Positions 18,001 through 45,933 of a stretch of DNA of 64,000 bases are shown here, piece by piece (positions within the stretch are counted from its first letter, which is position 1; every line of letters begins with the position of its first letter). The notes beneath the pieces were generated by a model. That model worked only from the letters and a program-made list of their open reading frames with translations, was not told the origin of the DNA and did not search any database. The stretch is from positions 12,455-76,454 of the forward strand of contig JAGMES010000004.1 of the NCBI GenBank assembly GCA_023128035.1, given 5' to 3'. The position numbers and the translations under genes were made by a program. The stretch comes from Halanaerobiales bacterium (lineage in GTDB: Bacteria > Bacillota_F > Halanaerobiia > DY22613).

Positions 18001-19445
18001 TAAATCATTCTAATTTAACAGAAGAAAAATTTGTCCTGAACATATATCAACCGGGTCGTAGAATGTATAGGACAGGAGATTTGGCGAGATGGCTAGCAGA
18101 TGGAAGTATTGAATTTTTGGGAAGGATAGACGATCAAGTTCAGATTAGAGGATTTAGAATTGAGTTAGGTGAGATAGAAAATCAACTTTTGAGTCATCCA
18201 AAGATTCGCAAAGCGGTAGTTATGGATAGGGAAGATACCAATAGAAACAAATATCTCTGTGCTTATATCGTTTCAGATGGAGAATTTAAGATAGCTGATT
18301 TAAGAAGATATCTAGGTAAAGAATTACCAGATTATATGATTCCTGCTCACTTTATCAGTTTAGATCAAATACCACTAACGCCGAATGGTAAGATTGATCG
18401 GCGAGCACTACCTAAACCAGATGTCAGTGTAAACATACGAACTGAATATGTGGCTCCTAAAACAGAAGTTGAAAAGAAGATGGCGGAAATATGGTCAGAG
18501 ATATTGGGAGTAGAACGAGTCGGGGTCAATGATAACTTCTTTGAATTAGGTGGACATTCTTTAACTGCAATCTCTGTTGTACAGAAAGTAAATGAAGATT
18601 TGGGTGTAGAACTACCATTACGAGAATTTATGAAAAATCCAAAGATATGTGAACTCGCTAGTTCTATCAGAGATTTTAAGAAGGTGTGTGTAGGTTATTT
18701 AGAGAAGGATGATAATCTGATATTATTAAAGACTGGTAATGATCAAACCAGACATCTCTTCCTGATTCATGATGGAAGTGGTGAAGTTGGAGGATATATC
18801 GACTTCTGTGAGCATATAATATCTGATTTCAACTATTGGGGAATTCGTGCAGATAGGTTAGAAGATTATCCAGCAGATGAATTGACAATTGAAGAGATTG
18901 CGCGAAAATATATAGAAAAGATCAGAGTGATTCAACCAGATGGGTCGTATTACATCGCTGGTTGGAGTTTGGGTGGTACTATCGCTTTTGAAATGATCAG
19001 TCAGTTAGAAGAGCTAGGGGAAGAAGTTGCATTTGGTGTTTTAATCGATACTTATCCACCAGAGTTGGATTCATGGGAAGAGATTGATGAAATTGCTGTT
19101 GGATCAGAAGAGGGAGATCTTGACGAGTTCAAAAATTCTATCCCTGTTGAAATAGCAAATGTAATACCGAATTTTGAGCACCTCAGTATTAAAAAAGTTA
19201 TCCACTATTTGAATGTTATTAGAATTTTATTCAATGCACGAGTGCATTATATCCCTACTAGAAAGATTGATACTCAGATTCACTTCTTTAAAGCAATTGC
19301 AACAGAGATGCCTAATCAAGATGAATGGAATCAATACTGTATTAGACCAATGAAAGTATATGAAATTGCTGGAGATCATTTTTCGATTTTTAGATCAGAG
19401 GAGGTAGTGGGTTTTGCTGAGGTGTTTGGGAAGATACTTAGGTAA
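3..19445 (+). CDS. Hybrid NRPS-PKS lipopeptide megasynthase, 5'-partial, terminal thioesterase
   Basis: The frame is open to the left edge, so the Met codon at 123 is internal. Domains by approximate base: fatty-acyl-AMP-ligase-type adenylation end (3-560; TGDIGF, GQNYYPYDLE), ACP (590-815; GLNSLKM), C (865-2150), A1 (2230-3720), PCP (3740-3990), C (4025-5320), A2 (5360-6820), PCP (6840-7070), KS1 (7155-8415; Cys in TACSSA, ETHGTGTK, NIGH), degenerate AT (8455-9350), ACP (9415-9635), C (9695-10970), A3 (11035-12520), PCP (12550-12770), KS2 (12875-14125), degenerate AT (14160-15050), KR structural remnant (15140-15335), ACP (15385-15610), C (15645-16910), A4 (16985-18420), PCP (18450-18680), TE (18715-19440; GWSLGG, GDHFSIF). 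By-eye specificity codes: A1 DVWHFSLVE (serine-like), A2 DPEDIGHVD (unassigned), A3 DFWNLGVVL (threonine-like), A4 DALFLGIVA (hydrophobic). No epimerase, active KR or DH is present. The C-terminal TE marks this as the last enzyme of its line, and a terminator follows. The product is inferred to be an acylated tetrapeptide with two malonyl-derived extensions. Confidence 0.95.
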   Translation: MRICDNQGNLVDDNIVGHIQVRGKTVTPGYYNAEELTTDAMTSDGWFKTGDIGFLSNGRLTAVDRVKNIIFVKGQNYYPYDLERITHEVDGIEPDQIGICGVKDEKEHIEKIVAFVQHSDSLTNFILIVLSLKRFFSKKTGLEIAEVVPVLSLSKTVSGKIQRFKLAIQYKNGQYDSVLKELDHLLNKEVMSRHIDLPTNEIEEKVIKICTEIFRTERIGVYDNLMELGLNSLKMTSLILSIHKVFDVELTHSQIVQNAIVKKLSELIEKSDKSIYRTIQIVEENESSKYLVSSAQKRIFALNQLNQDSTSYNISYMMVIEGMLDVERLKNVCDKIVERHDSLRTSFELLDGQPISHVHKNVNFKVEEWEVEENELEKVATQFVRPFDLSKAPLFRVGLAKYADKKYLLMFDMYHIISDGRSLEILIEELIQLYSMNDLPDVKIQYKDYTMWEKKFITSSSYKKQEEYWLNNFTGEIPVLNMPIDYVEGATNGAGRPAVITYKGDQLNFEIGEEFTAKLNSLAKKNGATLYMVLLAAYSILLSKYSGQEDIIVGSPIAGRRHQDLENIIGMFVNTLAIRNFPVAEKTFIEFLVEVKDRALKAYENQDYQFEMLVEKLNLERNLSRNPLFDMMFVLQNIDQKDIVINDLRFRPVDFKKNTAKFDIELSAFKRDGGLSFNLEYSTELFKHETMERFSKHFIEIVTGIIENSEVKIAELDMISNEEKEQILFKFNDTDKDFPGSKTIYQLFEEQVERTPEQIAAIFNDEYLTYQELNQKANQLARVLRTKGVKNDYVVGIMLHRSLEMIIGIFAIMKAGGAYLPIAPKYPTERIEFMLEDSNQRVLLTKGNYNVDFKCDGEILDLSDETLYLSDIDNLPMINGVNDLAYVIYTSGSTGKPKGVMIEHQAVVNRITWEQRKYPITSVDTILQKTPFTFDVSVWELFWWSIAGARVCFLKQDGEKEPETIVEAIDKYQITIMHFVPSMLTAFLNYIENFPDKIDKISSLRKVFASGEALKPTQVKNFNHLLNKANKTKLYNLYGPTEATVEVSYFECLPEKNLDIIPIGKPIDNIQLYILNKENKLQPIGVCGELHIGGIGLARGYLNRDKLTREKFIPSPFNHGRRIYKTGDLARWLPDGNIEYLGRIDHQVKVRGLRIELGEIEAKLLEHEDVNETVVLVKENSGDQFIAAYFTAEKELSNKELQEYLLKSLPDYMVPSYFVKLDSIPLTSNGKANRKALLDIEINTNISTEYVAPTTEAEEKLVAIFSEVLSIEKLGIHDNFFKLGGHSLKAIELISKIYKEFNVSLQVKEIFSSPTAHQLVQYFSEREEELYLPIERVKDKDYYPASSAQRRIFALRQLDDGITYNMPLIKIIKGDLNQNNFKRAVEEVIKRHDSFWMSFDLMNGEIVQRLQKDAEFEVGEFEVSEDQIEKIVSEFVRPFDLSKPPLVRANLIKCADKYIFMLDMHHIISDGKSLQIFIDELIDVYCGKELAKLDIQYEDYAVWQENFLTTELYKKQEQHWLEAFADEIPALAMSTDFPRPKEMSFEGEIYRFGLNTELDDQLYALTKENGISLFMVLMALYNILLMKYTSQEDIVVGTVTAGRNHPELQNIIGMFVNTLAVRTKLSGDNKFIEFLEEVKKNLLTIYENQDYQFDMLVEKLGLKRDFSRNPLFDTMFAFEERGNSISNFENITLVPYELKNYKVAKFDLSLIAVEVEDGLIFELEYNTGLFKKETIERLASHFSNIIKEIVANPEILISDIEVISEKEKHRLLFENNDTKTSYPLEYTIHQLFEEQVSITPDEVAVIFEDKRLTYLELSQKVNQLARVLRNKGVDSDQIVGIMVEKSLKMVIGIMGILKAGGAYLPLDPMYPKERISYILKDSDIQIFLTQFQFCDQMEWDGEIVDLEDERIYQGQPLIKNINHPNDLAYILYTSGSTGLPKGVMVEHQSVVNLVTWYKIKYNLKENRNVLQLTNYIFDPSVEQIFGTLLSGGRLYLAKKDLMSNKDLFIKYIEENQINIVDFIPSVLNELLIENPKVDSISAIICGGERLDDSLKDKIIAKGYQLYNHYGPTETTVDATVAECSEGKTVIGKPIANTQCYIVDKYNNLLPVDVVGELCISGVGLARGYLNRPKLTEAKFVPNVFWHNPLINGERMYKTGDLARWLPDGNIEFLGRVDNQVKIRGFRIELGEIENHLLKHQQVKEVAVIDKTRTDGTKYLCAYIVSKKEMSVIELREFLGRDLPEYMIPFHFVSLESMPFTSNGKIDRKALPEVEDNIHLGENFVEPVNETEERLAKIWAKVLGIEKIGVTNKFFEVGGDSIKIIRLNSLINQEFNSELNVTDLFNYSTIRQIAKFFSTDHSKREEMYLKRLRSKNTKKNISDKHIDIAVVGMSGRFPGANDLDEFWRNLSFGQEWVRDLPKSRITELEDMMGDFGRKEFGKAGYLDNVTLFEPEIFALSREESKFIDPQQRLLLELVEEAILDAGYNPEKLAGEKMGVLVAESENEYTRTFKTISPMAFINIPSVTGAGRISYFYNFTGPAVNVGTACSSALVALYYACQSLILNEVDATLVGGVNLNIFPIIRDDQEKVPILSINQQVRAFDKDADGTLAGEGGGVLFIKTLDSALEDGDSIYAIIKGWAINNDGNRSNGMSSPSEEGQADVVLTAIEKAEIDPLSLSYIETHGTGTKIGDPIEFAGLNKAFNSLGYKRQTLGIGSLKTNIGHLDGASGIASMIKTILALKNRKIPASLNFDEPNPLIKFENSSIYINDRLTDWESDTVRRAGVTSLGLIGTNAHIVIEEVLEKSTVLKTESDEQYLDIVQLSARTAYSLELMVKKLNKYLRKHPTLTLDDIAYTLNNGRRSYKHKFVTIAENTEDLIKILDSFNTQKLKDGEKYWVYQQPKKTKLSHAAFVIPDFVDEALEIYQGLNSEPVFKKHYDEYLQSLLDKDLHDVDIKDPKIQFTISMIAYAKMLETYAGKPDEIFGFGLGKIVSDFLSEKISFTECIAKVRNNNENRFILKENNLRELESVVIGRGVNLLAVFSLNQRLSNVFADFFRKERPTLLLLEPKVDIFYAAILEMMKKGLEINWQAVYRTQKRRRLNLPGYVFDRRSYYLQTETNLFDAEIKSEFYNAHVSKDLIQDHLLSMLRDLHIGENFELTDNLSELELDSVDILQFVGKVKKAYGIDVPMKLFFEQLKVGELFNIIEASTKDSKEENLILIQPLKESAYTSTYPITSAQKRLLVINGFDKDSISYNIYGGIVIEGELDLERFERAIKGLVQRHESFRTSFTISNGEPAQKIHQNLDFQIEYIQTEGKYLEKTVDQFFTPFDLSEAPLLRVGLVEYDKKYLFLFNMHHIISDGTSMIIFFNEFQMLYQGEQLEELRVQYKDFAVWQNEYLNSEQVKKQEAYWLDTFAGENAISVLNLMTDYSRPLKRDYKGKSVHFELSEELSVSLKEFVNVNNVTLYMVLLAALNVLLHKYTDQEDIIIGSPITGRRHADLEKIIGMFVNTLAMRNAPVAEKTFIQFLAEVKENALRAFDNQDYQFEKLVTKLNLERDLSRNPLFDIMFVLQNDGNVGFEMDDLKCSLYEFESNIAQFDITFEGVEIQDRLIFNIYYATQLYKEETINRICRNFANLLNEIILNPELSISEFEMITDEEKQQLLVDFNDTKTNDPNDQTIVQLFEAQVERTPERIAAVCEDECLTYRELNERANQLGRVLRKHGAGPEELVGIIAEPSLEMIIGMLAIVKAGGAYLPINPDYPEDRIAYTLKDSQTKILLTQQVLLEQISFTGEIIQIDDSKIYMGDSSNLNHLNKPDDLLYVIYTSGSTGKPKGVMIEHQNLIPLIVNARLKFDFNENDVWTMFHSFCFDFSVWEMYGPLLYGGKMVVIPKLAVKNPAEFLKILKKEKVTVINQTPTALYNLSAEEMKDETKELQLRYILFGGEAAQPIHLKAFYEKYPETKLINVYGITETTVLATFKVISTVEINTNLSNIGKPLPDLKTYLFDKNMHLVPIGAPGEICIAGYGVSQGYLNRPALTAEKFVQNPYVPDERLYRSGDLARLLPNGEMEYLGRIDHQVNIRGFRIELGEIENQLLHHQMVKEAVVIARNDAKGNQYICAYLILEGELSIVELREYLLKQLPEYMIPAYFMQLDKIPTTSNGKVDRKALPEPIGNLNTGVNYEAPKNEVETKLANIWSEVLGVKNIGINNKFFEVGGDSLKIIRLTDQINHEFNSNVTVTDLFKFSTIREMSSLLTDSSDEKALDSVNNLVFKNHVSFKNRSIEGTSYKDDDIAIIGISGRFPGADNLEEFWSNLASGKDLIRDLPESRIDELNKMLGEANQGRFMKGGHLDHVTLFEPEIFALSYEESKYIDPQHRLLLELVEEAILDSGYDPLKLSGQNIGVFLAMGENAYTPFFKSPSPMAFANMPTVSGAGRVAYLYNFAGPALNIDTACSSSLVALHNACQSLIRDETDAILIGGVSLDIFPVKIDDMEKLPIISHSQQIRTFDKDADGTILGEGGGIIFIKLVSKALEDGDPIHAIIKGSAINSDGRRSNGMSSPSEDGQADVILSAVKNADIDPLSISYIETHGTGTKIGDPIEVAGISQALNILGYKKQSVPIGSLKTNIGHLDKAAGIANVIKAVLSLKNKKIPASLHFDEPNPLIRFEDSPVYVNDCLADWESDTVRRVGVTSLGLIGTNAHVIVEEFLEEKRRASKEHPNIVRISARTRYSLENMMKNLRDYLVCHSELTLDDIAYTLNQGRRSYKHNFIAIVENTDDLINILNASITEKLQTKEKYWLYQQSKKKVPIVSGFFIPDLEDVDLAQFKLLSEKQPGFKEYYDQSINDLNDQTVASDLEIQYIINMYSYAKLMETYSVKPVKVLGIGRGIIIADLISGKITLEECIEKVKNYAKAVLAEKKVSEIVNKFLEEKVNFLIVFAPDLRLTNLFTDLCVAEEKLGLLILKSEIYSLYCALSEMIKEGLNVEWDKVYHGQNVKRLNLPGYVFDRKSFYLKSEINTQQDLFDDFGLNEVACEKVLDAVNMHEQGICLLCPDNLGIEQFLARKQSQENHNIIQIRPGTEFKKNDERSYTIRPNCEEDFEALFKELSLNQRSKKIDTRKVDHAVNKVTIRDNLYTILRDLYTGEDFELTDYINELDLDSIDIMQFIGKVKKAYNVDVKMRLFFESLTLNELFNTIEKLVKGSDEEDLISVQPAQEYYPVSSAQKRMLVLNQLDDQTTSYNISLALTIEGKFDKEAFENAIYKLFKRHEAFRTSFAFIDGEAVQKIHPNLDFKIEYIKAEENELDKITEEFYKPFDLSKAPLLRVGLVEYADKHLFMIDMQHIISDGFSMDIFFTEFIKLYNGEKLDELRIQYKDFAIWHNGYLQSEEMKQQQAYWLNLFKGEIPVLNVPIDYPRPLVRDLKGDFVWFELNEELTAQIHELAKSRDMSLYMLLLSAFNLLLYKYTGQEDIVIGSPIAGRRYPDVERIIGMFVNTLVMRNYLAAEQTFTQFMNQVKENTLQAFENQDYPFEMLVERLNLERNLSHNPLFDVMFVLQNAVDSEISSKDLKFYMYEFALTTALFDLTFEGYEIDDRLGFNIQYATQLFKKETIERMTEHFCNILNAIIQNPELRLSEINMISPEGKYQLTIGFNETNQEYPKDKTIQQLFEENVEKRIDQIAVIFGENHLTYGELNEKANQLARILTEKGVKPDKIVGIMMESSLEMFIGILGILKADGAYLPIDPKYPINRIEYMLSDSKTSILLTQYHLVNQIKFSGEMISIDAEELYRGDMRNLPKISTAKDLAYVIYTSGSTGKPKGVMIEHHSLVNLVVWYNHCYKVTDLDRSTKYAGFSFDASVLEIFPYMITGSTIHIIPEEIRLDINMLNEYFENNRITISFLPTQLCEQFMNVDNQSLRLLLTGGDKLRSYKKRNYQIVNIYGPAENTVATTSFVVDKDYANIPIGKPIANTKVYILDAENHLQPIGIAGELCIVGDGLSRGYLNHSNLTEEKFVLNIYQPGRRMYRTGDLARWLADGSIEFLGRIDDQVQIRGFRIELGEIENQLLSHPKIRKAVVMDREDTNRNKYLCAYIVSDGEFKIADLRRYLGKELPDYMIPAHFISLDQIPLTPNGKIDRRALPKPDVSVNIRTEYVAPKTEVEKKMAEIWSEILGVERVGVNDNFFELGGHSLTAISVVQKVNEDLGVELPLREFMKNPKICELASSIRDFKKVCVGYLEKDDNLILLKTGNDQTRHLFLIHDGSGEVGGYIDFCEHIISDFNYWGIRADRLEDYPADELTIEEIARKYIEKIRVIQPDGSYYIAGWSLGGTIAFEMISQLEELGEEVAFGVLIDTYPPELDSWEEIDEIAVGSEEGDLDEFKNSIPVEIANVIPNFEHLSIKKVIHYLNVIRILFNARVHYIPTRKIDTQIHFFKAIATEMPNQDEWNQYCIRPMKVYEIAGDHFSIFRSEEVVGFAEVFGKILR

Positions 19446-36704: not shown

Positions 36705-36722
36705 AAACGTAACTAAGCAAAA

Positions 36723-36748
36723 GGACTTCTGGTGAAATTCAGAAGTCC
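36723..36748. terminator. Hairpin terminator between GNAT fusion gene and deacetylase remnant
   Basis: GGACTTCTG pairs with CAGAAGTCC around an 8-nt loop, with CTT and T-rich flanks. It can serve both strands and is homologous to the hairpin at 27705-27732. Confidence 0.65.
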
Positions 36749-36758
36749 CTTCATTTTG

Positions 36759-37160
36759 TTAAGATTTATAAGCTGGAACGTTTAACAAGTTATTTACAGT
36801 AACAAACTTATATCCGAGAATCTTTAGTGTTTCAATTAATTCTGGAAGAGCATTTACTGTATTAGTATAACTAAGATCTGTTCCACTTCCGGAATGAAAG
36901 AGTAGAATAGATCCATTTTTAACATCTGGTAAAGTGTTAATCAATATTTGATCTACATCTCTATCACGTCAATCAACAGAATCAACAGACCAATTAATCA
37001 CTTTATAGTCCATTTCTTTTAATTGCTTAACATTTTCAAGAGAAACACTTCCATAAGGCGGACGTATTAACGCAGTTTTTAAGCCAGTAATTTTTTCAAG
37101 AATCTGCTCAGTGTAAATTGCATCAGGACCATCATCAAAGGTTAAAGCAATTTTGTTGGA
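36759..37160 (-). pseudogene. Polysaccharide deacetylase (NodB-type) pseudogene
   Basis: The minus strand reads KIALTFDDGPDAIYTEQILE, the first NodB motif with catalytic Asp-Asp. It then jumps directly to RPPYGSVSLENVKQL, the later motif, so the middle of the domain with the metal-binding histidines (HSxxH) is deleted. Further on, TGA stands in place of the expected Trp codon in DSVDW. The C-terminal third (GSILLFHSGSG onward) is open to its stop at 36759-36761. The N-terminal export region is also absent. The gene cannot make an active peptidoglycan or chitin deacetylase. Confidence 0.85.
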
Positions 37161-37170
37161 ACAGTAATTT

Positions 37171-37335
37171 TTGCAGAAAGCTCGTTATGATATAGAGAAT
37201 GAAGTACCTATTGCTGAAGTTGACTTTGCAAAAATATTATAAGATGATGATACAATTGAAAAGATTGCACAGATTGTAGGATCTCATAGTAAAAGTGCCG
37301 GCATTCCCTGTCGGAGAAAGGTTTAAGGATTTGAT
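37171..37335 (+). pseudogene. Decayed coding fragment of unknown family
   Basis: The frame reads ARYDIENEVPIAEVDFAKIL to TAA at 37240, then continues in frame DDDTIEKIAQIVGSHSK before a shift. The amino-acid composition looks protein-coding but the stop and shift show decay. Not identified. Confidence 0.35.
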
Positions 37336-37340
37336 AAATT

Positions 37341-37697
37341 TTGAATGAGAGTAATACTAATGAAGATATATATAATGTCGATGATATTTTTGAAATAGAA
37401 GTAAATAATTCGACATATGACTTGGTTTACGATTCGGGTTGTTTTCATCATTTACCACCTCACCAAAGATTAAAGTATCTAGATCTTTTATCTAAAGCTT
37501 TAAAGTCAAACGGATTTTTTGGTTTAACCTGTTTTGCACCTGGGGGTGGGTCAGATATTTCAGATTGGGAAGTTTATAGAAAAAATAGTCTTCAGGGAGG
37601 TTTATCTTATACAGAAGAAAAACTCAAAAAAATATTTTCTAAAAATTTTGAGGTTATAGAATTTCGTAAGATGAAAGAAATTCAACAATTTACTTAA
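37341..37697 (+). pseudogene. SAM-dependent methyltransferase fragment
   Basis: The 118 residues correspond to the C-terminal half of a class I methyltransferase (YDLVYDSGCFHHLPPHQR, then LSKALKSNGFFGLTCF). The N-terminal glycine-rich SAM-binding loop is missing, and the end is also shorter than usual for such proteins. The TTG start has no convincing ribosome binding site. A truncated remnant is therefore much likelier than an active enzyme. Confidence 0.65.
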
Positions 37698-37716
37698 TAA
37701 ATAAAAACTATTAATA

Positions 37717-37745
37717 TTGATAATTCAGTATATTTATGGTATAAT
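37717..37745 (+). promoter_or_regulatory. Sigma-A-type promoter of the radical SAM peptide cassette
   Basis: TTGATA and TATAAT are 17 bp apart, a near-consensus promoter about 80 nt before the first radical SAM gene. It gives the cassette its own transcription unit inside a zone of decayed genes. Confidence 0.75.
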
Positions 37746-37827
37746 AAATGTGCGGTATATTTTTTAATAAAAATTTACAATAAGTAAAATTATAAGCTCA
37801 CTGAGACACAAATAAAGGAGGCGTTGT

Positions 37828-39144
37828 ATGAACCTAAAGCCATCTTATTACAATCATTTGGCCAAATTAAATAATGGAAAAGTAGTGTTATTCAATTTTT
37901 TGACTGGTAACTTAAAAGAAATTGACGAAGCGGATATTGATAAACTCAAATTCATCTTTGAAAATTGCAATAAAAACTTTGATGGGTATTCTGAAAACTT
38001 AAAAAAAGAATTGATCAACGATTTGTATTTAGTTCCAGAAGATGCGAATGAATTAGATATAGTTCGTATTCGAAACTTATCGACAAGATATGATAATCTA
38101 ATTTATAACCTCGTACTCATGCCGACATTAGATTGCAACTTTTCTTGTAAATATTGTTATGAATCTAAAGAGCAAATTTTTATGAGTGAAGATGTGAAAA
38201 TAGGTATTATTAATTGGGCTACAAAAATTGCAAGAGTGAGTAAGCGTTTTGTAATCAATTGGTTTGGTGGAGAGCCATTATTAGATTTTTCTATCATTGA
38301 AGAGATAAATAGTAGTATAAAAAATATTTGTACAGAAAATAGATGCTTTTTTATTTCTGATATAACTACAAATGGATATCTTTTGACAGATGAGATTTTG
38401 AGTAAAGTCGATAATTTAAATATTACTAGTTTTCAAATTACTGTGGATGGGCCACCAGAAATACATAATAAATATCGTCCGTTAGAAAATGGTGAAGGAA
38501 CATTTGATATAGTTTATAAAAATATATTGAAAATTTTAGATCAAACACGAGCTAATGTTGCTCTAAGAGTGAATGTTGATCAAAATAACTTTGATAAGAT
38601 ACCAGATTTTTTAAATATGATACCTAAAAAATATCGCACACCAAGGCTGATGATCGTATTTAAAGATATCTTTTCTGATCCTAGTGGCAAAACAGGCAGA
38701 GAATCTGAAATAGATCAGAACCGAATAAACACTTATAAAAAAATGAAGCAACTATATCACTATGGTATGGAACAAGGGTTCAATGTTTTCTTACCCACAT
38801 TTAGTATCCGTGATCATCATTGTAATAGTGGGTCAAAGAACTATTTTATTGTTCATCCAACTGGGGATTTGTACAGATGTACTGTTGAATTTGCAACAGG
38901 AAAAAGTATAGGGAAATTATTTAAAGATGGCTCATTAGATATAGATAGCTATGCAACTTCTAAATGGTTATCTTATATTCCTGGAGATGATGAAAAATGT
39001 GCAAAATGTAAATTTTTACCTTTATGCCAGGGTGGATGCAGATATAATAGAATGATGGGTAAACTACCTTGTTCGCTTGAATCTACTGATATCGATGGAG
39101 TAATCGAGTTATATTATTTATCTAAAACTCATTCACAAAGGTAG
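37828..39144 (+). CDS. Radical SAM/SPASM peptide maturase
   Basis: Residues about 1-90 form an N-terminal region (YYNHLAKLNNGKVVLFN) of the sort seen in maturases of ribosomal peptides, where it contacts the precursor. The radical SAM core has CNFSCKYCYE, FGGEPLLD and later ITVDGPPEIHNKYR. The C-terminal SPASM region carries auxiliary-cluster cysteines (YRCTVEF, EKCAKCKFLPLCQGGCRY and a final Cys in GKLPCSLE). Such enzymes form thioether or carbon-carbon crosslinks in small peptides. ATG follows AAAGGAGGCG by 7 nt. The candidate precursor gene starts 113 nt after its stop and a second SPASM protein follows. No transporter or protease is adjacent. Confidence 0.88.
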   Translation: MNLKPSYYNHLAKLNNGKVVLFNFLTGNLKEIDEADIDKLKFIFENCNKNFDGYSENLKKELINDLYLVPEDANELDIVRIRNLSTRYDNLIYNLVLMPTLDCNFSCKYCYESKEQIFMSEDVKIGIINWATKIARVSKRFVINWFGGEPLLDFSIIEEINSSIKNICTENRCFFISDITTNGYLLTDEILSKVDNLNITSFQITVDGPPEIHNKYRPLENGEGTFDIVYKNILKILDQTRANVALRVNVDQNNFDKIPDFLNMIPKKYRTPRLMIVFKDIFSDPSGKTGRESEIDQNRINTYKKMKQLYHYGMEQGFNVFLPTFSIRDHHCNSGSKNYFIVHPTGDLYRCTVEFATGKSIGKLFKDGSLDIDSYATSKWLSYIPGDDEKCAKCKFLPLCQGGCRYNRMMGKLPCSLESTDIDGVIELYYLSKTHSQR

Positions 39145-39167
39145 AAAAATTAATTTGTTTATAATTT

Positions 39168-39384
39168 TGAAGCGGGGAAGAAAACATAAGCTTTATAAAA
39201 TGAAAACTTTAAGTTTTTATGGTTTAACTAAATTTTTAAACAAAGGAGGTGTATAGCATGTTAAATAACTTATGGGATCTTGACAATTATTCTTGGGATG
39301 ATATGGACGTACCTCCAATTAAAGTGTACTGTTGCCCAGACGCAATAGATTTTGATAATTAATTAGTATATTCTCCCCGCTTCA
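39168..39384. repeat. 11-bp inverted repeat bracketing the precursor gene
   Basis: TGAAGCGGGGA (39168-39178) and its exact complement TCCCCGCTTCA (39374-39384) flank the 34-codon gene at about 90 and 12 nt. GC-rich arms are unusual in this AT-rich DNA. In RNA they could close a stem around the precursor mRNA and stabilise or segment it. Confidence 0.6.
39258..39362 (+). CDS. Candidate 34-residue RiPP precursor peptide
   Basis: A short frame too small for ordinary gene finding starts at ATG 39258, 6 nt after an excellent AAAGGAGGTG site. The peptide begins MLNNLWDLDNYSWDD and ends KVYCCPDAIDFDN. It is acidic and rich in aromatic residues (Trp6, Tyr11, Trp13, Tyr24) with a Cys25-Cys26 pair and a Pro19-Pro20 pair. 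It lies exactly between two radical SAM/SPASM genes, the classic layout for a modified ribosomal peptide. Likely crosslink sites are the aromatic residues or the vicinal cysteines. No leader cleavage motif such as Gly-Gly is visible. The function as precursor is inferred from the site, the length and the neighbours. Confidence 0.75.
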   Translation: MLNNLWDLDNYSWDDMDVPPIKVYCCPDAIDFDN

Positions 39385-39406
39385 TTTACTAAAAGGAGGA
39401 AAAATA

Positions 39407-40447
39407 ATGAAATATAAACCCAAATTTGGTATTTGGGAATTAACTAATGCCTGTAATGCAAAATGTCTTCACTGTGGATCTCAGTCAGGAAAATGCCGTG
39501 ATAATGAATTGACTTTAGAAGAAGTATTGAGAGTATGTGATGAACTGAAAGAAACAGGATGTGAACGTATTACTTTAATGGGGGGAGAATTTTTTTTAAG
39601 CCCTCATTGGGAAGCAGTTTGCAAAAGATTAGTTGAGAACAATATAAGGGTAGCACCTCTAACAAATGGATTATTATTAAACGAGAAGAATATTATGAAA
39701 CTAAAAGAATTAGGTATAGATAGATTAGGAATAAGTATAGATGGATTGGAAGAAACTCACAATTATTTAAGAGGTGTTCCAAATCTCTTTAGTAGATTAA
39801 TAGAAAATTTAAAGAAAGCTCAAAGCAAAGGTTTTAAAATTGCAATTATTACTGCAGTGTCTGCAGTGAATCTTAATCAATTACCTGAATTATATAAGTT
39901 TATCAAAGAATTAGGAATCCGAGTTTGGCAAGTTCAAATTGTTGAGGACGTAGGAAACGCTAATCAAAATTCAGAACTACATCTAACATTGGAAGATGTT
40001 TATAAATTAGCGAAATATGTTGCCAAGTTTCGCCGAGAAGATAATGATATGAAAATATTACTTGGTGATAATGTAGGCTTTTATACTACCTTTGAACCAT
40101 TAATAAGAGATAATCCGTTTACAGGTTGTGCTGCCGGAAGACAAGTTGTGGGTATAACTGCAAATGGTGATATTCGTGGATGTCTTTCTGTTTATGGTGA
40201 TAAAGAAAATATAGAAGGAAATATTAGGGAACGTTCATTTAAAGATATTTGGGAAGATCCGAATTTATTTACTGTTTATCGTAATCGAACAGTTGATAAG
40301 TTAACTGGTTTTTGTGCAGAATGTAAGTATAATAATCTTTGTCGTGCGGGATGTTCATCATTAGCATATTCACTGACTGGAAAATTTTATGAGAATCCTT
40401 TCTGTTTACATAAATATGAAGTCGAAAATGGTTTGAATTCACAATGA
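39407..40447 (+). CDS. Second radical SAM/SPASM protein of the peptide cassette
   Basis: A 346-residue radical SAM protein with CNAKCLHCGS as the cluster motif at residues about 16-25, MGGEFFLSP as the SAM-binding GGE motif, and a SPASM C-terminus (RGCLSVYGD, FCAECKYNNLCRAGC, PFCLHKYE). It belongs to a different branch from the first maturase: it lacks the long N-terminal region and resembles PqqE/AlbA-like SPASM proteins in outline. AAAAGGAGGA lies 7 nt before ATG. It starts 44 nt after the precursor stop and ends the operon before a terminator. Two maturases with one precursor suggest two successive modifications, or one modification enzyme with a partner. Confidence 0.88.
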   Translation: MKYKPKFGIWELTNACNAKCLHCGSQSGKCRDNELTLEEVLRVCDELKETGCERITLMGGEFFLSPHWEAVCKRLVENNIRVAPLTNGLLLNEKNIMKLKELGIDRLGISIDGLEETHNYLRGVPNLFSRLIENLKKAQSKGFKIAIITAVSAVNLNQLPELYKFIKELGIRVWQVQIVEDVGNANQNSELHLTLEDVYKLAKYVAKFRREDNDMKILLGDNVGFYTTFEPLIRDNPFTGCAAGRQVVGITANGDIRGCLSVYGDKENIEGNIRERSFKDIWEDPNLFTVYRNRTVDKLTGFCAECKYNNLCRAGCSSLAYSLTGKFYENPFCLHKYEVENGLNSQ

Positions 40448-40478
40448 TTTTCTATAAATATAAATAGTATTTTAATAT

Positions 40479-40510
40479 CCCTCATAAATCGTTAGATTTA
40501 GAGGGCTTTT
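40479..40510 (+). terminator. Terminator of the radical SAM peptide operon
   Basis: CCCTCATAAATC and GATTTAGAGGG form a stem with one bulge around GTTA, followed by CTTTT. It closes the cassette opened by the promoter at 37717. Confidence 0.75.
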
Positions 40511-40513
40511 ATA

Positions 40514-40555
40514 TTTAACGACATTTCAGAAGGGGAAGTCCCCCTCGACTTTAAA
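40514..40555. repeat. Partial palindromic repeat unit
   Basis: Begins TTTAACGACATTTCAGAAG, like the end of the ParB-like pseudogene (from 30868), contains a GGGGA/TCCCC hairpin and ends CGACTTTAAA. These pieces are shared with the units at 30992-31042 and 43150-43195. Confidence 0.5.
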
Positions 40556-40797
40556 TAAAATACCTATGTTTTGGGATTGGGAGTATAAGATGAAGTTGTA
40601 TTATTATTATTGTGTAAGTGTTATAATAAAAGGAATAATAAGTAGTTAAACTAATATATAATGTATATTTTAGTAACTTTTTTAGAAGAAAGAAAGGTAA
40701 ATATTAGGTATTATTAATTGTTATTGTAAGTGGGAAGGTTGATGTGATTTAGGGTTTGAAATTTTTGGCAAGATCAAATTTAAAGGGGGTTGTTATA
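40556..40797. other. Intergenic AT-rich DNA without recognised genes
   Basis: No frame with a ribosome binding site was seen here. A TATAAT-like box near 40630 has no well-spaced upstream partner. The AAAGGGGG site at the right end belongs to the next gene. Confidence 0.5.
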
Positions 40798-42175
40798 TGC
40801 GTAAAAAAAATTATTAGGCTGTTCTCTGTTTGTATTGCTGATATTACTCATAACAGGGTGTACTCCACTTATCCAATACAGTCTACAAATTACTATTGAA
40901 GGTAATGGACAAGTAATTCCTGCAAGTGGTAGTTTTCTTATGGGTACTTCCGTTCATTTAATAGCTACACCAGACGAAAATTGGGAGTTTGAGAATTGGA
41001 GTGGTGATATTACTGGGACAAATCCAAGCGCTGCAATTATTATGGATTCCAACAAGGTAATAAAAGCAAAATTTAGACCTGCTCAAGCTTTAACTACAGC
41101 AAGAAATTCAACCGTTGAAAAAATAGATATTATTAATATGGATGCATGTTTAATGCAAATGATAGAAGTTGCATACGAATGGAAAAACGAGGTTGACTAT
41201 CTGGTAGGCTCTGAACAAACAGTACCTGGTGATGGGAATGATTATACTTCGTTATTAGAGGCACTTAACGATGATCCATATATGAGTAAAGTGGATTTAG
41301 TCAATACTTTAGTTGATACTTTCAATGATTATTATTCCATATATGGATATGATGATGAAACTTATTCAGCACTTAATCTGGGTGATTCTTTTAATACCTT
41401 GATTTCAGCTTTTACCACTTTCGCTACCGCATTAAATAATACACCTTCGATGCAAGAGGTATATAACGCCAGGAATGATTCAGTTTACTTTGAGGATATA
41501 TCTGTGATTGATTTAGGCAGTTTTGCAGATGGTTTGTTATTATATTCTACTGATAGCACAGTTACTGATGCTGCTCAATATTTAAAACAAGCTCTAGATC
41601 AAGCTATCATTAATCATCAAGAAACCTTTGAAGATACAGTTTATGGATTAGCGATATTATTGCTATCCTATGAAGAATGGTCTGAATACTCAGAGTATGA
41701 AAATTTAATGTTGGCAGAAGACACTGATTGGGATGAGTTTATTGAACGTTTTGCAGAGTACACAGAACAGCCAACTTTCTCAAGTATTCTTTCATTTTCT
41801 GTTACTTGGTCCTCTGATGATTGTGACCTGGGTATTGTAGAACCTGATGGGAGTGTTTTTGATGTAGCAGATGAAGAAAGTCCAAATGGGGTTTTTTTAG
41901 AGGATATGATGGACGGTGGAACAGAATCGTGGTCACTCAAAAGTAACCCTGATGAAGGCGAATATAGTGCGAAAGTATATAGTTGGGATTATATTGGAAA
42001 TATTTATTTTACAATTAAGACTGCTAGCCAAGAATTTGTGTATGAAGAGTACATTACTCCAGATGAAATAATCAGTTTTTCAGGTGTAGTTGTTGAAAAC
42101 AGTACTAGTAATATTCAAATAAAGATTAAGATTGAGAAATTTGCTAATAAAGAAGTTAGAACAAAGAATAATTAA
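40798..42175 (+). pseudogene. Lipoprotein with InlB-like repeat and truncated clostripain (C11) domain, frameshifted
   Basis: ATG 40798 follows AAAGGGGG by 8 nt and begins MRKK. A run of eight A residues (40803-40810) then throws the frame into TAG. With nine A residues the frame would read a lipoprotein signal ending LLITGC and join the 446-codon frame open from 40835 to 42175. Residues about 15-80 resemble a bacterial InlB-B-type repeat (GHG-free; WSGDITGTNPSA). After this comes NMDACLMQMIEVAYEW, matching the catalytic-Cys segment of clostripain peptidases, and VGSEQTVPGDGNDY. The preceding half of C11, with the catalytic His, is absent. The C-terminal part looks like a beta-sandwich. The gene could be a decayed protease, or be expressed by slippage as a non-proteolytic lipoprotein. 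Confidence 0.65.
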
Positions 42176-43352: not shown

Positions 43353-43572
43353 CATCATTTTTTTACTTAGAAAAGAAAAGTATTTTGATAAATTAAGTAT
43401 GTATTTTCTCTTTAGTAATCAAAATTAGGTATAAAGGTACAAGGAAATATATCATGGATGTTTAATTTAAATCATATATAGGTATTATTTATCACAAATA
43501 AGTATAAACTTATACTATATAGTGGTAATTAGTGAGATTTGTATTACTGCGATGTGGAGGGGAGTCACAGGA

Positions 43573-44622
43573 ATGAGGTTAGTCACTGTAAACGATATTA
43601 CGTCAGAGATGACTTTAGCGAAACCAATTTATTATAATGATCGAATTTTGCTAAATATAAATTGTATAGATCTATTTAAGTATAGGAAAAGGTTAATAGA
43701 TTTTGGCATTAATTATGTCTATGTAAATGATGAACTATCAGAAGGAATTGAAATAAAGGATATTATTAAAGATGAAACTAGACAAAAAAGCAAAAAAATC
43801 ATTAAAGAAACATTAAATAATATATCTTTTATAACTGAAACTAAGATAGCAAACATTCAAAATGTTGTTCACGAAATGGTTGATGAGATTACACAGAGTG
43901 ATGATATTATAGTTAATCTAGTTGATATCAAGACATATGATTCCTATACTTTTTCTCATTCAGTAAATGTGACTGTTTTATCACTAATATTAGGAAAAGC
44001 ACTGTATTATACCAGAGAGCAATTAATTAAACTAGGAACTGGTGCATTATTACATGATTTTGGTAAAACGCTGATTCCAGTGGAAGTATTAAATAAGCCA
44101 GATAAACTTACAGATGAAGAGTATGAAATTGTTAAGGAACATTCGAGATTAGGGTATGAGCATCTAAAAGATAATTACTTTATTAGTCCTCTATCTAGAG
44201 CTGTTATTTTATCTCATCATGAGAAAATTGATGGTACAGGATACCCGAAGGGACTAAAAAGAGATGAAATTCATGACTTTGCAAAGATAGTAGCAATTAC
44301 TGATGTTTTTGATTCGTTAAATAGCGATCGTGTATATCGAAAAAGGTGGCCTACATTTAAAACAGTGAATTTTATACTCTCAAATGTAGATTCTCATTTT
44401 GAAAAATATTTAGTAACTAAATTTTTGAAGCATATAGCTGTGTATCCAAACGGTACATTTGTAACTTTGAGCAATGGACAAAAGGCAATCGTAAAAAGTC
44501 AAAACAAAAATTTCCCCACAAAACCTATTGTAAAAATCATTCAGGGTAAAGATGGTACGAAGTTGTCTTTTACAGTTAATTTACTAGATGAGTCGGATTA
44601 TTTTATTATTGCTTCTCAATAA
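43573..44622 (+). CDS. HD-GYP domain protein, putative cyclic-di-GMP phosphodiesterase (copy 1)
   Basis: A 349-residue cytoplasmic protein with an N-terminal DUF3391-like region (residues 1-110) and a C-terminal HD-GYP domain. Metal and active-site motifs are present: HDFGK (His161-Asp162), the HHEK pair and GTGYP (221-225), followed by DVFDSLNSDRVYRKRW. Family members hydrolyse cyclic di-GMP to pGpG or GMP. ATG 43573 is chosen over the upstream GTG-type frame because a GGAGGGGAG site precedes it and the paralogue downstream begins at the same residue (MRLV). No receiver or membrane segment is present. Interplay with the tandem copy is likely. Confidence 0.88.
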   Translation: MRLVTVNDITSEMTLAKPIYYNDRILLNINCIDLFKYRKRLIDFGINYVYVNDELSEGIEIKDIIKDETRQKSKKIIKETLNNISFITETKIANIQNVVHEMVDEITQSDDIIVNLVDIKTYDSYTFSHSVNVTVLSLILGKALYYTREQLIKLGTGALLHDFGKTLIPVEVLNKPDKLTDEEYEIVKEHSRLGYEHLKDNYFISPLSRAVILSHHEKIDGTGYPKGLKRDEIHDFAKIVAITDVFDSLNSDRVYRKRWPTFKTVNFILSNVDSHFEKYLVTKFLKHIAVYPNGTFVTLSNGQKAIVKSQNKNFPTKPIVKIIQGKDGTKLSFTVNLLDESDYFIIASQ

Positions 44623-44853: not shown

Positions 44854-45933
44854 ATGAGGTTAGTCAGTTTAAACGATATCACTTTAGAGATGACTTTAGC
44901 GAAACCAATTTATTATAATGATCGAATTTTGTTAAATATAGATTGTAAAGATATATCTAAATATAGGGAAAGATTGATAGAATTTGGAATTAATTATGTC
45001 TACATAAATGATGAATTATCAGAAGGTATTGCAATTGAGGATATTATTAAAGATGAGACTAGACAAAAAAGCAAAAAAATTATTAAAGATACATTAAATT
45101 CTAGACTAAATAATATATTCTATATAACTGAAACCCAAGTTGCTAATATTCAAAATGTGGTTTACGATATGGTTGATGAAATTTCTCAGAGTGATGAGGT
45201 AATAGTTAATCTTTTGGATATAAAGGCATATGATTCTTACACATTTTCCCATTCGGTAAATGTAACTGTTTTATCACTAATATTAGGAAAGGCTTTGTAT
45301 TACACTAGAGAGCAATTAATTAAATTAGGTATTGGTGCATTATTACATGATTTTGGTAAAACGATGATTCCTCTGGAAATATTAAATAAGCCGGATAAAC
45401 TTACAGATGAAGAGTTTGAAATTGTTAAGGAACATTCGCGGTTAGGGTATGAGCGACTAAAAGATCAAACGTTAATTAGTCCTCTATCTAGAGCGGTTAT
45501 TTTATCTCATCATGAAAAAGTTGATGGTACAGGTTATCCGAAGGGACTTAAAAATGATGAAATTCATGATTATGCAAAGATAGTCGCGATTGCAGACGTT
45601 TTTGATTCTTTAAATAGTGATCGTGTATATCGAAAAAGGTGGCCTACATATAAGATAGTGGATTTTATTCTCTCAAATGTTGATAAACATTTTGAGAAAC
45701 AGTTCGTAAATAAATTTTTAAAGTACATCGCTGTGTATCCGAATGGTACTTTTGTTACATTGAGTAATGGGCAAAAGGCAATTGTACAAAAGCAAAATAA
45801 AAACTGTCCTACAAAACCTATTGTAAAAATCATTCAGGATATGGATGGTAGGAAGATGTCACAAACAGTTAATTTAATGGATCAGTTAGATCTTGTGGTT
45901 GTTATTTCACATGAGGGCGAATCATATAATTGA
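44854..45933 (+). CDS. HD-GYP domain protein, putative cyclic-di-GMP phosphodiesterase (copy 2)
   Basis: A close paralogue of the preceding gene with the same layout: MRLVSLNDITLEMTLAKPIY at the start, then HDFGK, HHEKVDGTGYPKGL and SDRVYRKRW in the HD-GYP domain. It carries a short insertion around residue 88 (LNSRLNN against LNN) and a C-terminal extension. All metal ligands seem intact in both copies. A GGAGGGGAG site lies upstream of ATG, in a leader similar to that of copy 1, so the duplication included the start region. The 230-bp gap has no other gene. A long perfect terminator follows. Confidence 0.88.
   Translation: MRLVSLNDITLEMTLAKPIYYNDRILLNIDCKDISKYRERLIEFGINYVYINDELSEGIAIEDIIKDETRQKSKKIIKDTLNSRLNNIFYITETQVANIQNVVYDMVDEISQSDEVIVNLLDIKAYDSYTFSHSVNVTVLSLILGKALYYTREQLIKLGIGALLHDFGKTMIPLEILNKPDKLTDEEFEIVKEHSRLGYERLKDQTLISPLSRAVILSHHEKVDGTGYPKGLKNDEIHDYAKIVAIADVFDSLNSDRVYRKRWPTYKIVDFILSNVDKHFEKQFVNKFLKYIAVYPNGTFVTLSNGQKAIVQKQNKNCPTKPIVKIIQDMDGRKMSQTVNLMDQLDLVVVISHEGESYN

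What the first reader, a model, noticed from the sequence alone, without database searches (positions are those of the whole stretch)
37717..40510. Undescribed-looking RiPP cassette: two radical SAM/SPASM enzymes around a 34-codon precursor
Seen: a promoter, a SPASM maturase, a 34-codon frame with AAAGGAGGTG 6 nt before ATG, a second SPASM enzyme from a different branch, and a terminator form one complete unit. The peptide is acidic, has two Trp, two Tyr, a Cys-Cys pair and no Gly-Gly leader site. Known: SPASM enzymes next to tiny genes make sactipeptides, ranthipeptides or aromatic cyclophanes. Inferred: crosslinks involve Trp6/Tyr11/Trp13 or Cys25/Cys26. It resembles no precursor class I can name. 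There is no exporter or protease, so the product may act inside the cell or be cleaved by a general protease.
Basis: partly seen in the sequence, partly recalled or inferred. Interest (0 to 1): 0.88.

Follow-up and report, generated by a model that had tools for sequence, protein, structure and literature searches.

The report
Tiny-peptide cassette with two radical enzymes
A bacterium related to Halothermothrix carries a real but undescribed-looking gene cassette in which two iron-sulfur radical enzymes probably remodel a 34-residue peptide, one likely by cutting a tyrosine out of the backbone, and a relative carries seven such cassettes whose peptide genes sit inside a conserved messenger-RNA stem.

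Summary
In detail: SPASM enzyme A (37828-39144), a 34-codon gene (39258-39362) and SPASM enzyme B (39407-40447), with promoter and terminator. It is conserved: a Halothermothrix MAG has seven close B genes, each near one to four homologous 28-41-codon genes (16 in all), plus one orphan, under purifying selection.

B belongs to a radical-SAM superclade several of whose branches sit beside X-Tyr-[Gly/Ala/Met] substrates: PlpX-type nif11 'spliceotides', DUF1843/GDL proteins, an NHLP-leader peptide. All 22 precursors have Tyr followed by Gly, Cys, Met or Ser in the core, here K-V-Tyr24-Cys-Cys-Pro. I propose that B is splicease-like and excises tyramine at Tyr24. A has a CteB-like RRE fold and was seen only with K-x-Tyr-Cys-x-Pro precursors, so it probably acts on Cys25/Cys26.

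A second, unreported feature: in all eight cassettes read, precursor gene(s) are enclosed by an 11-19-nt inverted repeat that covaries and favours G-U pairs, consistent with an mRNA stem that frees or protects the precursor message (one further two-gene unit is not significant).

New variant of a known kind. The RiPP claim is strong; the chemistry and the stem's role are inferred.

The parts
37717..37745 (+). extended -10 sigma-70-type promoter
   Evidence: TTGATA-17-TATAAT, 11 of 12 consensus positions, TG before -10
37828..39144 (+). enzyme A: RRE + radical SAM + SPASM maturase, new subfamily near Clo7bot/TIGR04463/CefB
   Evidence: homologues P0002-P0011 at 58-79%; AF2 mean pLDDT 90
37828..38097 (+). 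N-terminal RRE-like domain of A (residues 1-90)
39168..39178 (+). 5' arm of the precursor-enclosing stem, TGAAGCGGGGA
   Evidence: 11/11 complementary to 39374-39384; 0 of 300 shuffles reach its score
39242..39251 (+). Shine-Dalgarno AAAGGAGGTG of the precursor gene
39258..39362 (+). precursor peptide gene, 34 codons
   Evidence: homologues and P0242; pS/pN > 1 in 12 of 12 chosen comparisons, 3 of them with the window
39273..39296 (+). conserved block W6-D-L8..Y11.W13, proposed recognition element
   Evidence: W[NDE]L in 22 of 22 precursors
39324..39338 (+). core site V23-Tyr24-Cys25-Cys26-Pro27; proposed excision at Tyr24 and Cys modification
   Evidence: Y[GCMSA] in 22 of 22 cores against a mean of 6.4 and a maximum of 12 in 2000 shuffles
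39374..39384 (+). 3' arm of the precursor-enclosing stem, TCCCCGCTTCA
39391..39399 (+). Shine-Dalgarno AAAAGGAGG of gene B
39407..40447 (+). enzyme B: RRE-free radical SAM/SPASM protein of the splicease-like superclade
   Evidence: TIGR03913 246 bits and TIGR04103 220 bits, both below cut-off; tree; shared W68 and W174-Q-x-Q
40479..40505 (+). intrinsic terminator stem-loop with one bulge
   Evidence: -13.2 kcal/mol, z -4.07

Best explanation
This is a RiPP operon (shown by conservation and selection). The 34-residue peptide has almost no leader: the W6-[N/D]-L8..[Y]11.[W]13 block probably serves as the recognition element (inferred). [quoted passage not shown] Unlike PlpX it has no adjacent RRE protein and would accept Cys, Met or Ser as well as Gly after the Tyr. 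Enzyme A, which has its own RRE-like domain and was seen only with K-x-Tyr-Cys-x-Pro precursors, probably installs a thioether at Cys25 or Cys26 (inferred). The precursor ORF lies in the loop of a long-range mRNA stem. The stem probably allows the precursor message to be cut out or protected, as the long stems around pre-rRNAs do, giving more precursor than enzyme (structure supported by covariation, role inferred).
For: Linkage: 7 of 7 close B genes of the Halothermothrix MAG have precursors. Profile A3 gives 17 matches in that genome, 16 beside B genes; the other 58 genomes of its class give 2 weak matches in 2 genomes (E 0.003 and 0.009). Profile A4, from precursors not of that MAG, gives 7 hits with E at or below 1.1e-6, all beside B. 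Selection: pS/pN 1.9 to 9.2 in 12 of 12 comparisons. Clade: B is monophyletic (100/99) and sister to a group (97/89) with several branches beside X-Y-[G/A/M] substrates: nif11 precursors at 20 of 21 TIGR04103 loci over the cut-off, DUF1843 proteins 11 of 11 in four related records, Gastranaerophilales L010-L012, L062/L063. The B homologue of L007 (55%) has an NHLP-leader precursor with FWNLD and SAYGG. W68, Q175 and Q177 are conserved in 21 B rows and 15 YG-associated rows and absent from 6 of 6 comparison rows. Splicease chemistry: passages of PMC10533398 and PMC11002830. Stem: 9 of 10 units at or below 1 of 300 shuffles; orphan L082 0 of 500; 8 units in one register 98% paired, 4 of 40320 permutations as good, the true one included.
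Against: The window's site is Y-C, not the Y-G of known spliceases. B scores far below the TIGR04103 and TIGR03913 cut-offs and branches outside both; the rooting rests on long outgroup branches that the tool warns about. No RRE protein lies beside B, whereas PlpX was characterised with PlpY. Not every branch of the superclade shows an X-Y-G substrate: none was evident at the 5 sub-cut-off TIGR04103 loci, at two of seven plasmid records fetched (Agathobacter, Tropicibacter), or at most of 20 distant loci (clear in L011, arguable in L045). Tyr11-Ser12 of the window's block also fits Y[GCMSA]; I counted only the core. The thioether is inferred from neighbouring families. One of ten bracket units (L001 c/d) is not significant (77 of 300), and in three of ten another locus's 3' arm pairs better than the own one. 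No expression or mass data exist.
Confidence: 0.5

Rival explanations
1. B (and perhaps A) makes aromatic cyclophane or ether crosslinks in the N-terminal W6-D-L8..Y11.W13 block; the Tyr24 motif is incidental.
Confidence: 0.17
2. B does act on Tyr24 but by another reaction, for example Tyr-derived crosslinking, Cbeta cleavage or oxidation, not tyramine excision.
For: Only PlpX has shown chemistry in the passages I saw; B is outside its equivalog; the residue after Tyr is Cys, Met or Ser in 16 of 22 precursors.
Against: The branches with recognisable substrates share X-Y-[small/Met], and B shares W68 and WQxQ with the TIGR04103 enzymes, which favours one ancestral reaction.
Confidence: 0.22
3. 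The bracketing inverted repeats are DNA elements (invertible-cassette ends or terminal repeats of a mobile precursor cassette), not an mRNA stem.
For: They flank the precursor gene(s) closely, and the number of precursors inside varies from one to four.
Against: Arms differ between loci yet pair within a locus (mean score within 16.0, between 9.8). Of 10 non-Watson-Crick cells 8 are G-T in the sense strand, 1 A-C and 1 A-A, which DNA repeats do not predict. Imperfect arms in L003 and L082 argue against site-specific inversion.
Confidence: 0.12
4. The 34-codon frame is spurious and the cassette is only two unrelated radical-SAM genes.
For: Small ORFs are common in AT-rich DNA (one search lists dozens).
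Against: Conserved linkage, purifying selection and an independent profile search.
Confidence: 0.01

Closest known systems
Spliceotides: PlpX/PlpY splicease and PlpA precursors (IPR026482, which I recall to be TIGR04103)
   Same: Same radical-SAM/SPASM superclade; X-Tyr-[Gly] type site in the core; the B homologue of L007 sits beside an NHLP-leader precursor, as PlpX sits beside nif11/nitrile-hydratase-like ones.
   Different: B is a separate deep branch far below the TIGR04103 cut-off; 28-41-residue precursors without nif11/NHLP leader; no adjacent RRE; Y followed by C, M, S or G; a second SPASM enzyme or a B12 radical-SAM protein in some cassettes; precursor-enclosing stem.
GDL-motif/DUF1843 systems (TIGR03913)
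   Same: B's best NCBIfam match; neighbours carry X-Y-[G/A/M] near the N terminus, so Met after Tyr is shared with L003-type precursors.
   Different: Putative substrates are 54-70-residue DUF1843 proteins, not acidic mini-peptides; the enzyme is longer (about 475-520 aa).
Clo7bot, TIGR04463 and CefB maturases; ranthipeptide synthases CteB and PapB
   Same: A matches these families best and has the CteB-like RRE + radical SAM + SPASM build; the model names of two of them speak of Cys-rich targets.
   Different: A is far below every cut-off (252 against 600 bits for Clo7bot); its peptides have only one or two Cys.
Long-range processing stems around pre-rRNA (recalled)
   Same: A segment is enclosed as the loop of a long helix.
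   Different: Here the loop is a peptide ORF in an mRNA; no processing has been shown.

Membership tests
RiPP biosynthetic cassette (general) | small ORF conserved beside homologous modifying enzymes | tested here: met
   7 of 7 close B genes in G001 have precursors; independent profile A4
RiPP biosynthetic cassette (general) | precursor under selection as a protein | tested here: met
   pS/pN 1.9 to 9.2 in 12 of 12 chosen comparisons of 14-33 codons; 1.1 to 17.5 in 4 of 4 core comparisons with few sites
PlpX-type splicease (TIGR04103) | equivalog score above the curated cut-off | tested here: not met
   220 bits against 725
PlpX-type splicease (TIGR04103) | X-Tyr-Gly site in the core | tested here: not met
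   window has V-Y-C; Y-G occurs in the L002, L004 and L005 precursors; Y-[GCMS] in 22 of 22
PlpX-type splicease (TIGR04103) | nif11/NHLP-type leader on the precursor | tested here: not met
   none in the window; the precursor beside the B homologue of L007 has one, NF038399 40.6 bits against 40
PlpX-type splicease (TIGR04103) | RRE protein next to the enzyme | tested here: not met
   no separate ORF for one between or beside A and B; in G001 the PqqD hits over the cut-off lie away from the seven B loci; A carries its own RRE-like fold
PlpX-type splicease (TIGR04103) | kinship and shared enzyme motifs | tested here: inconclusive
   same superclade as TIGR04103 and GDL in a 70-row tree; W68, Q175, Q177 shared; but B is sister to the other branches, not nested in TIGR04103
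PlpX-type splicease (TIGR04103) | tyramine excision, about -135 Da | not testable with these tools
   needs mass spectrometry
Ranthipeptide synthase (CteB/PapB) for A | RRE + radical SAM + SPASM fold | tested here: met
Ranthipeptide synthase (CteB/PapB) for A | family score above cut-off | tested here: not met
   PapB 119 against 340, SCIFF 94 against 425, Clo7bot 252 against 600
Ranthipeptide synthase (CteB/PapB) for A | Cys thioether in product | not testable with these tools
   only correlation of A with Y-C precursors
Cyclophane-forming SPASM systems | aromatic-X-X crosslink motif modified | tested here: inconclusive
   W-[NDE]-L block is conserved but may be recognition only

The most novel reading that the evidence does not exclude
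A previously undescribed RiPP family: almost leaderless 28-41-residue precursors, expressed from mRNA segments enclosed by a covarying processing stem like those around rRNAs, are matured by an RRE-free splicease-like enzyme that removes tyramine at X-Tyr-[Cys/Met/Ser/Gly]. Interchangeable second enzymes (an RRE-SPASM Cys modifier or a B12 radical-SAM protein) diversify the product into acidic alpha-ketoamide peptides that could act as protease inhibitors, with seven cassettes in one genome.
Probability: 0.35. Interest if true: 0.85.

Novelty: new variant of a known kind. Interest (0 to 1): 0.72.

Why it matters
If B excises tyramine before Cys, Met or Ser with no RRE and almost no leader, it would widen the splicease rule as I read it (X-Tyr-Gly, RRE partner, long leader) and offer a compact tool for putting reactive ketoamides into peptides. 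Pairing it with a Cys-acting SPASM enzyme could give a new bond combination. The precursor-enclosing stem is an expression device that I know from no other RiPP operon (one literature search, listing only), and it makes a testable claim about how a cell makes more precursor than enzyme from one transcript. The seven parallel cassettes of one genome also form a natural series for reading enzyme specificity.

Tried and rejected
Viral contigs: 19 pattern matches, no relative. Rfam on 37100-40900: no match up to E 0.1. Pfam and NCBIfam on the precursor: nothing. Plasmids: no close B, best rows about 37%. A PDB sequence search with the B profile found no protein named as a splicease; best SkfB and PqqE.

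Literature, listings unless said otherwise: Halanaerobiales + radical SAM + RiPP, 0 papers; cyclophane and genome mining, 2; 'splicease', 11 papers, 7 listed; two of PlpX/PlpY/tyramine, 8, 7 listed; two of spliceotide, rSAM, precursor, 596, 20 listed; TIGR04103/IPR026482, 1; DUF1843, 3; TigE, 0; ketoamide, 49, 12 listed; inverted repeat + precursor, 61, 8 listed. None of the listed titles showed this cassette or stem. I read passages of PMC10533398 and PMC11002830 and term-searched PMC9062424 without hits; no paper was read whole. A paper on widespread spliceases that I recall (Chem 2022) is not held, so part of the X-Y-G distribution, DUF1843 included, may be in print.

Considered and dropped: the bracket as an occluder of B's ribosome site (in L002 the 3' arm ends 105 nt before B); the Peptidase_C11 gene downstream as a leader protease (no such gene among the 20 MAG neighbours scanned); the bracket as a general feature of nif11 precursors (12 control units and L007 show none). 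The SAR324 label of L007 may be a binning error. The first L082 test used misplaced flanks and was repeated correctly.

Selections and dropped rows: the genome scan is pattern-based (two peptide patterns), so absence elsewhere is soft; one search names one more Halanaerobiales MAG protein (P0133, 62%). The tree used 70 rows, 21 of them B proteins. The A-B distance test used 8 of the 11 closest A proteins; P0005, P0007 and P0008 had no B with an equal contig length. Three of the six comparison rows are TIGR04133-like (by my label, not scanned) and fall, on a long branch, inside the superclade. The registered stem count left out L003c, which shares its 3' arm with L003abc, L001 c/d, and the window and L001 a/b arms, which are of another register. 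Stem flank limits were set after one search had shown the repeats. The Y[GCMSA] set was chosen after seeing the peptides, and the core was taken to begin nine residues after the Trp.
Full report
WHAT IS THERE. The window holds one compact operon: promoter 37717-37745, enzyme A 37828-39144, a 34-codon gene 39258-39362, enzyme B 39407-40447 and a terminator 40479-40505 that folds with z -4.07 (the consensus scan does not list it, probably because of one bulge). The peptide has no family match. The host is a relative of the class that holds Halothermothrix: the window's UvrD/PD-(D/E)XK helicase-nuclease is 58% identical over nearly its whole length to that of one genome of the class (G152) and 49% to that of the Halothermothrix MAG (G001); the longest matches of the others listed are at 38% or less. 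G152 has no close B and no precursor hit with profile A3.

THE SMALL GENE IS REAL. Homologues of B at 51-84% identity form a tight family of 67 listed proteins, after which identity drops to 43%. A pattern-based scan of 84,980 species genomes found loci of that closeness in two genomes: a Halothermothrix MAG (seven loci, L001-L006 and L008) and one contig binned as SAR324 (L007); one more Halanaerobiales MAG is named among the proteins (P0133). All seven MAG loci carry one to four small genes of 28-41 codons that begin M[LIV][ND] and have W[NDE]L one or two residues later, 16 in all; a profile finds one more, an orphan downstream of an NRPS-like ORF (my reading of that ORF; L082). The same profile over the 59 genomes of the class gives 17 matches in that genome and two weak ones (E 0.003 and 0.009) elsewhere. 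Since that profile contained MAG sequences, I repeated it with five precursors not taken from the MAG (A4): 11 matches in G001, seven with E at or below 1.1e-6, all beside B genes (the L001, L004, L005 and L006 cassettes), and four weak ones (E 0.08 to 0.67) beside the others; G152 and G002 give one chance-level match each (E 0.44, 0.32). Synonymous change exceeds nonsynonymous change in 12 of 12 gap-free comparisons of 14-33 codons that I chose (ratio 1.9 to 9.2) and in 4 of 4 core comparisons of the window with L001, one of which is only 1.1.

ANATOMY OF THE PRECURSORS. Twenty-two precursors (window, 16 beside MAG B genes, L082, and four from the protein search) all have W[NDE]L near the N terminus, a negative net charge and a Tyr followed by Gly, Cys, Met or Ser in the core: Y[GCMSA] in 22 of 22, against a mean of 6.4 and a maximum of 12 in 2000 shuffles of the same cores. 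The 22 are not independent, the residue set was chosen after seeing them, and the window's Tyr11-Ser12, outside the core, fits it too. Cores fall into types: C-Y-G (L002), Y-M-P-x-E (L003, L082), Y-M-P (L008), P-Y-G (L004, L005), P-Y-S-A-A-T (L006 and three metagenome peptides), and K-[VLIA]-Y-C-[CTA]-P (window, four in L001, P0242). The last type is the only one seen with enzyme A: 6 of 6 against 0 of 16, of which three have no known context. For P0242 the link to an A gene rests on an equal contig length (90,939). G001 has one close A, beside the L001 B gene. L004, L006 and L008 instead have a B12-binding radical-SAM protein (PF02310 + PF04055); L002, L003 and L005 have B alone. Near L005, L006 and L008 there are ABC-transporter or FtsX-like genes about 1.6-6 kb away on the opposite strand, one beside an M1-peptidase-like protein; the neighbours scanned at L001-L004 have none (20 ORFs in all).

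WHAT B IS. B's best NCBIfam models are TIGR03913 (GDL motif, 246 bits, cut-off 592) and TIGR04103 (nif11 maturase 3, 220 bits, cut-off 725), so it is a member of neither. In a 70-row tree B is monophyletic (100/99) and sister to a group of the other branches (97/89), rooted by three long rows. I then asked what those branches act on. Twenty of 386 sampled genomes of the phylum of L017 (Cyanobacteria by its record title) have TIGR04103 enzymes over the cut-off; at 20 of the 21 loci a nif11-type precursor with an X-Y-G site such as QPLYGV lies within the 1.5-kb flanks. [quoted passage not shown] None was evident at the five sub-cut-off loci. Of seven plasmid records fetched, four (three of them Azospirillum) have 11 DUF1843 genes beside the enzyme, 11 of 11 with X-Y-[G/A/M] near the N terminus, one (Nostoc) has a nif11 X-Y-G precursor, and two (Agathobacter, Tropicibacter) have no clear site. 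Gastranaerophilales neighbours carry TKYGVYF and TLYGVQ, and L062/L063 carry LAYGVPI and MYYGIKYPEP. Among 20 distant loci scanned a site is clear in L011, arguable in L045 and not evident in the rest. The closest bridge is L007: B homologue at 55%, followed by a precursor with an NHLP leader (NF038399, 40.6 bits, cut-off 40) and a core with FWNLDVDN and SAYGG, thus both the W-N-L block and an X-Y-G site. W68 and W174-Q175-x-Q177 of B are at least 95% conserved in 21 B rows and 15 YG-associated rows, and W68, Q175 and Q177 are absent from 6 of 6 comparison rows. Hence the proposal that B is splicease-like and acts at V23-Tyr24-Cys25. It differs from PlpX in having no leader of that type, no RRE beside it (PqqD-type hits over the cut-off in G001 lie away from the B loci) and a broader residue after Tyr.

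A STEM AROUND THE PRECURSOR. In each of the eight cassettes an inverted repeat encloses precursor gene(s): 5' arm 26-79 nt before the first start codon, 3' arm 11-61 nt after the last stop and before the next gene. In the window it is 39168-39178/39374-39384, 11 of 11. Scores are at or below 1 of 300 shuffles in 9 of 10 units (L001 c/d fails, 77 of 300); arms pair within a locus (mean 16.0) better than between loci (9.8), the own 3' arm ranking first in 7 of 10, second in 2 and third in 1. The orphan L082, not part, shows it too (0 of 500). In eight units of one register 98% of cells pair; pair 9 occurs as G-C, T-A, A-T and C-G; of 10 non-Watson-Crick cells 8 are G-T, 1 A-C and 1 A-A; 4 of 40320 arrangements of the 3' arms do as well, the true one included. 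Twelve nif11 precursor units and L007 show nothing of the kind. The covariation and the preference for G-T in the sense strand point to a stem in the mRNA. Its role (cutting out or protecting the precursor message) is my inference.

VERDICT. Its crosslink guess is less likely than Tyr-centred splicing plus a Cys modification, and the enclosing stem is an extra finding. The whole is a new variant of a known kind: it probably works like a spliceotide system with a second SPASM enzyme but fails several membership tests of that family.

Noticed in passing
L004, L006, L008 (about 8230-9990): B12-binding radical-SAM proteins of about 490 aa stand in for enzyme A beside B in three MAG cassettes; possible C-methylating or other partner of the splicease-like enzyme.
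   Followed up: partly
L082, minus strand (peptide MINKWNLENLSYESATEPPYMDYMPSEPPYDEHFNIA): Orphan precursor with its own stem, not near any of the seven B genes and a few hundred bases downstream of an NRPS-like ORF (my reading of the ORF); perhaps served in trans.
   Followed up: partly
L007 8557-14227: Contig binned as SAR324 with B, an NHLP-leader precursor (FWNLD, SAYGG, CSGCGGW tail), an HxsB-like enzyme (357 bits, cut-off 370) and two more radical-SAM genes in a row.
   Followed up: partly
L132, L136, L139, L140: DUF1843 proteins beside GDL-type or related enzymes carry X-Y-M and X-Y-A as well as X-Y-G near the N terminus, suggesting that such enzymes may tolerate residues other than Gly after Tyr.
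   Followed up: partly
L063 (G349) and L062: GG-leader and nif11-like precursors with MYYGIKYPEP, DYGV and AYGV beside B-like enzymes of 508-510 aa; another apparent spliceotide branch.
   Followed up: no
window 40835-42175: Lipoprotein-like ORF with a Peptidase_C11 (clostripain family) domain and an InlB-type repeat just downstream of the cassette; its start lies by an A-run and is unclear.
   Followed up: no
window 36706-37697: Possible remnants upstream of the cassette: a deacetylase-like fragment on the minus strand (my reading, not searched) and a short methyltransferase-like ORF (hits below cut-off), suggesting that the cassette sits in a rearranged spot.
   Followed up: no
window 123-19445: A single 6440-aa ORF that reads like an NRPS/PKS (my reading, not searched).
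   Followed up: no
window 43522-44622 and 44854-45933: Two tandem paralogous HD-domain (HD_5) ORFs of about 360 aa.
   Followed up: no
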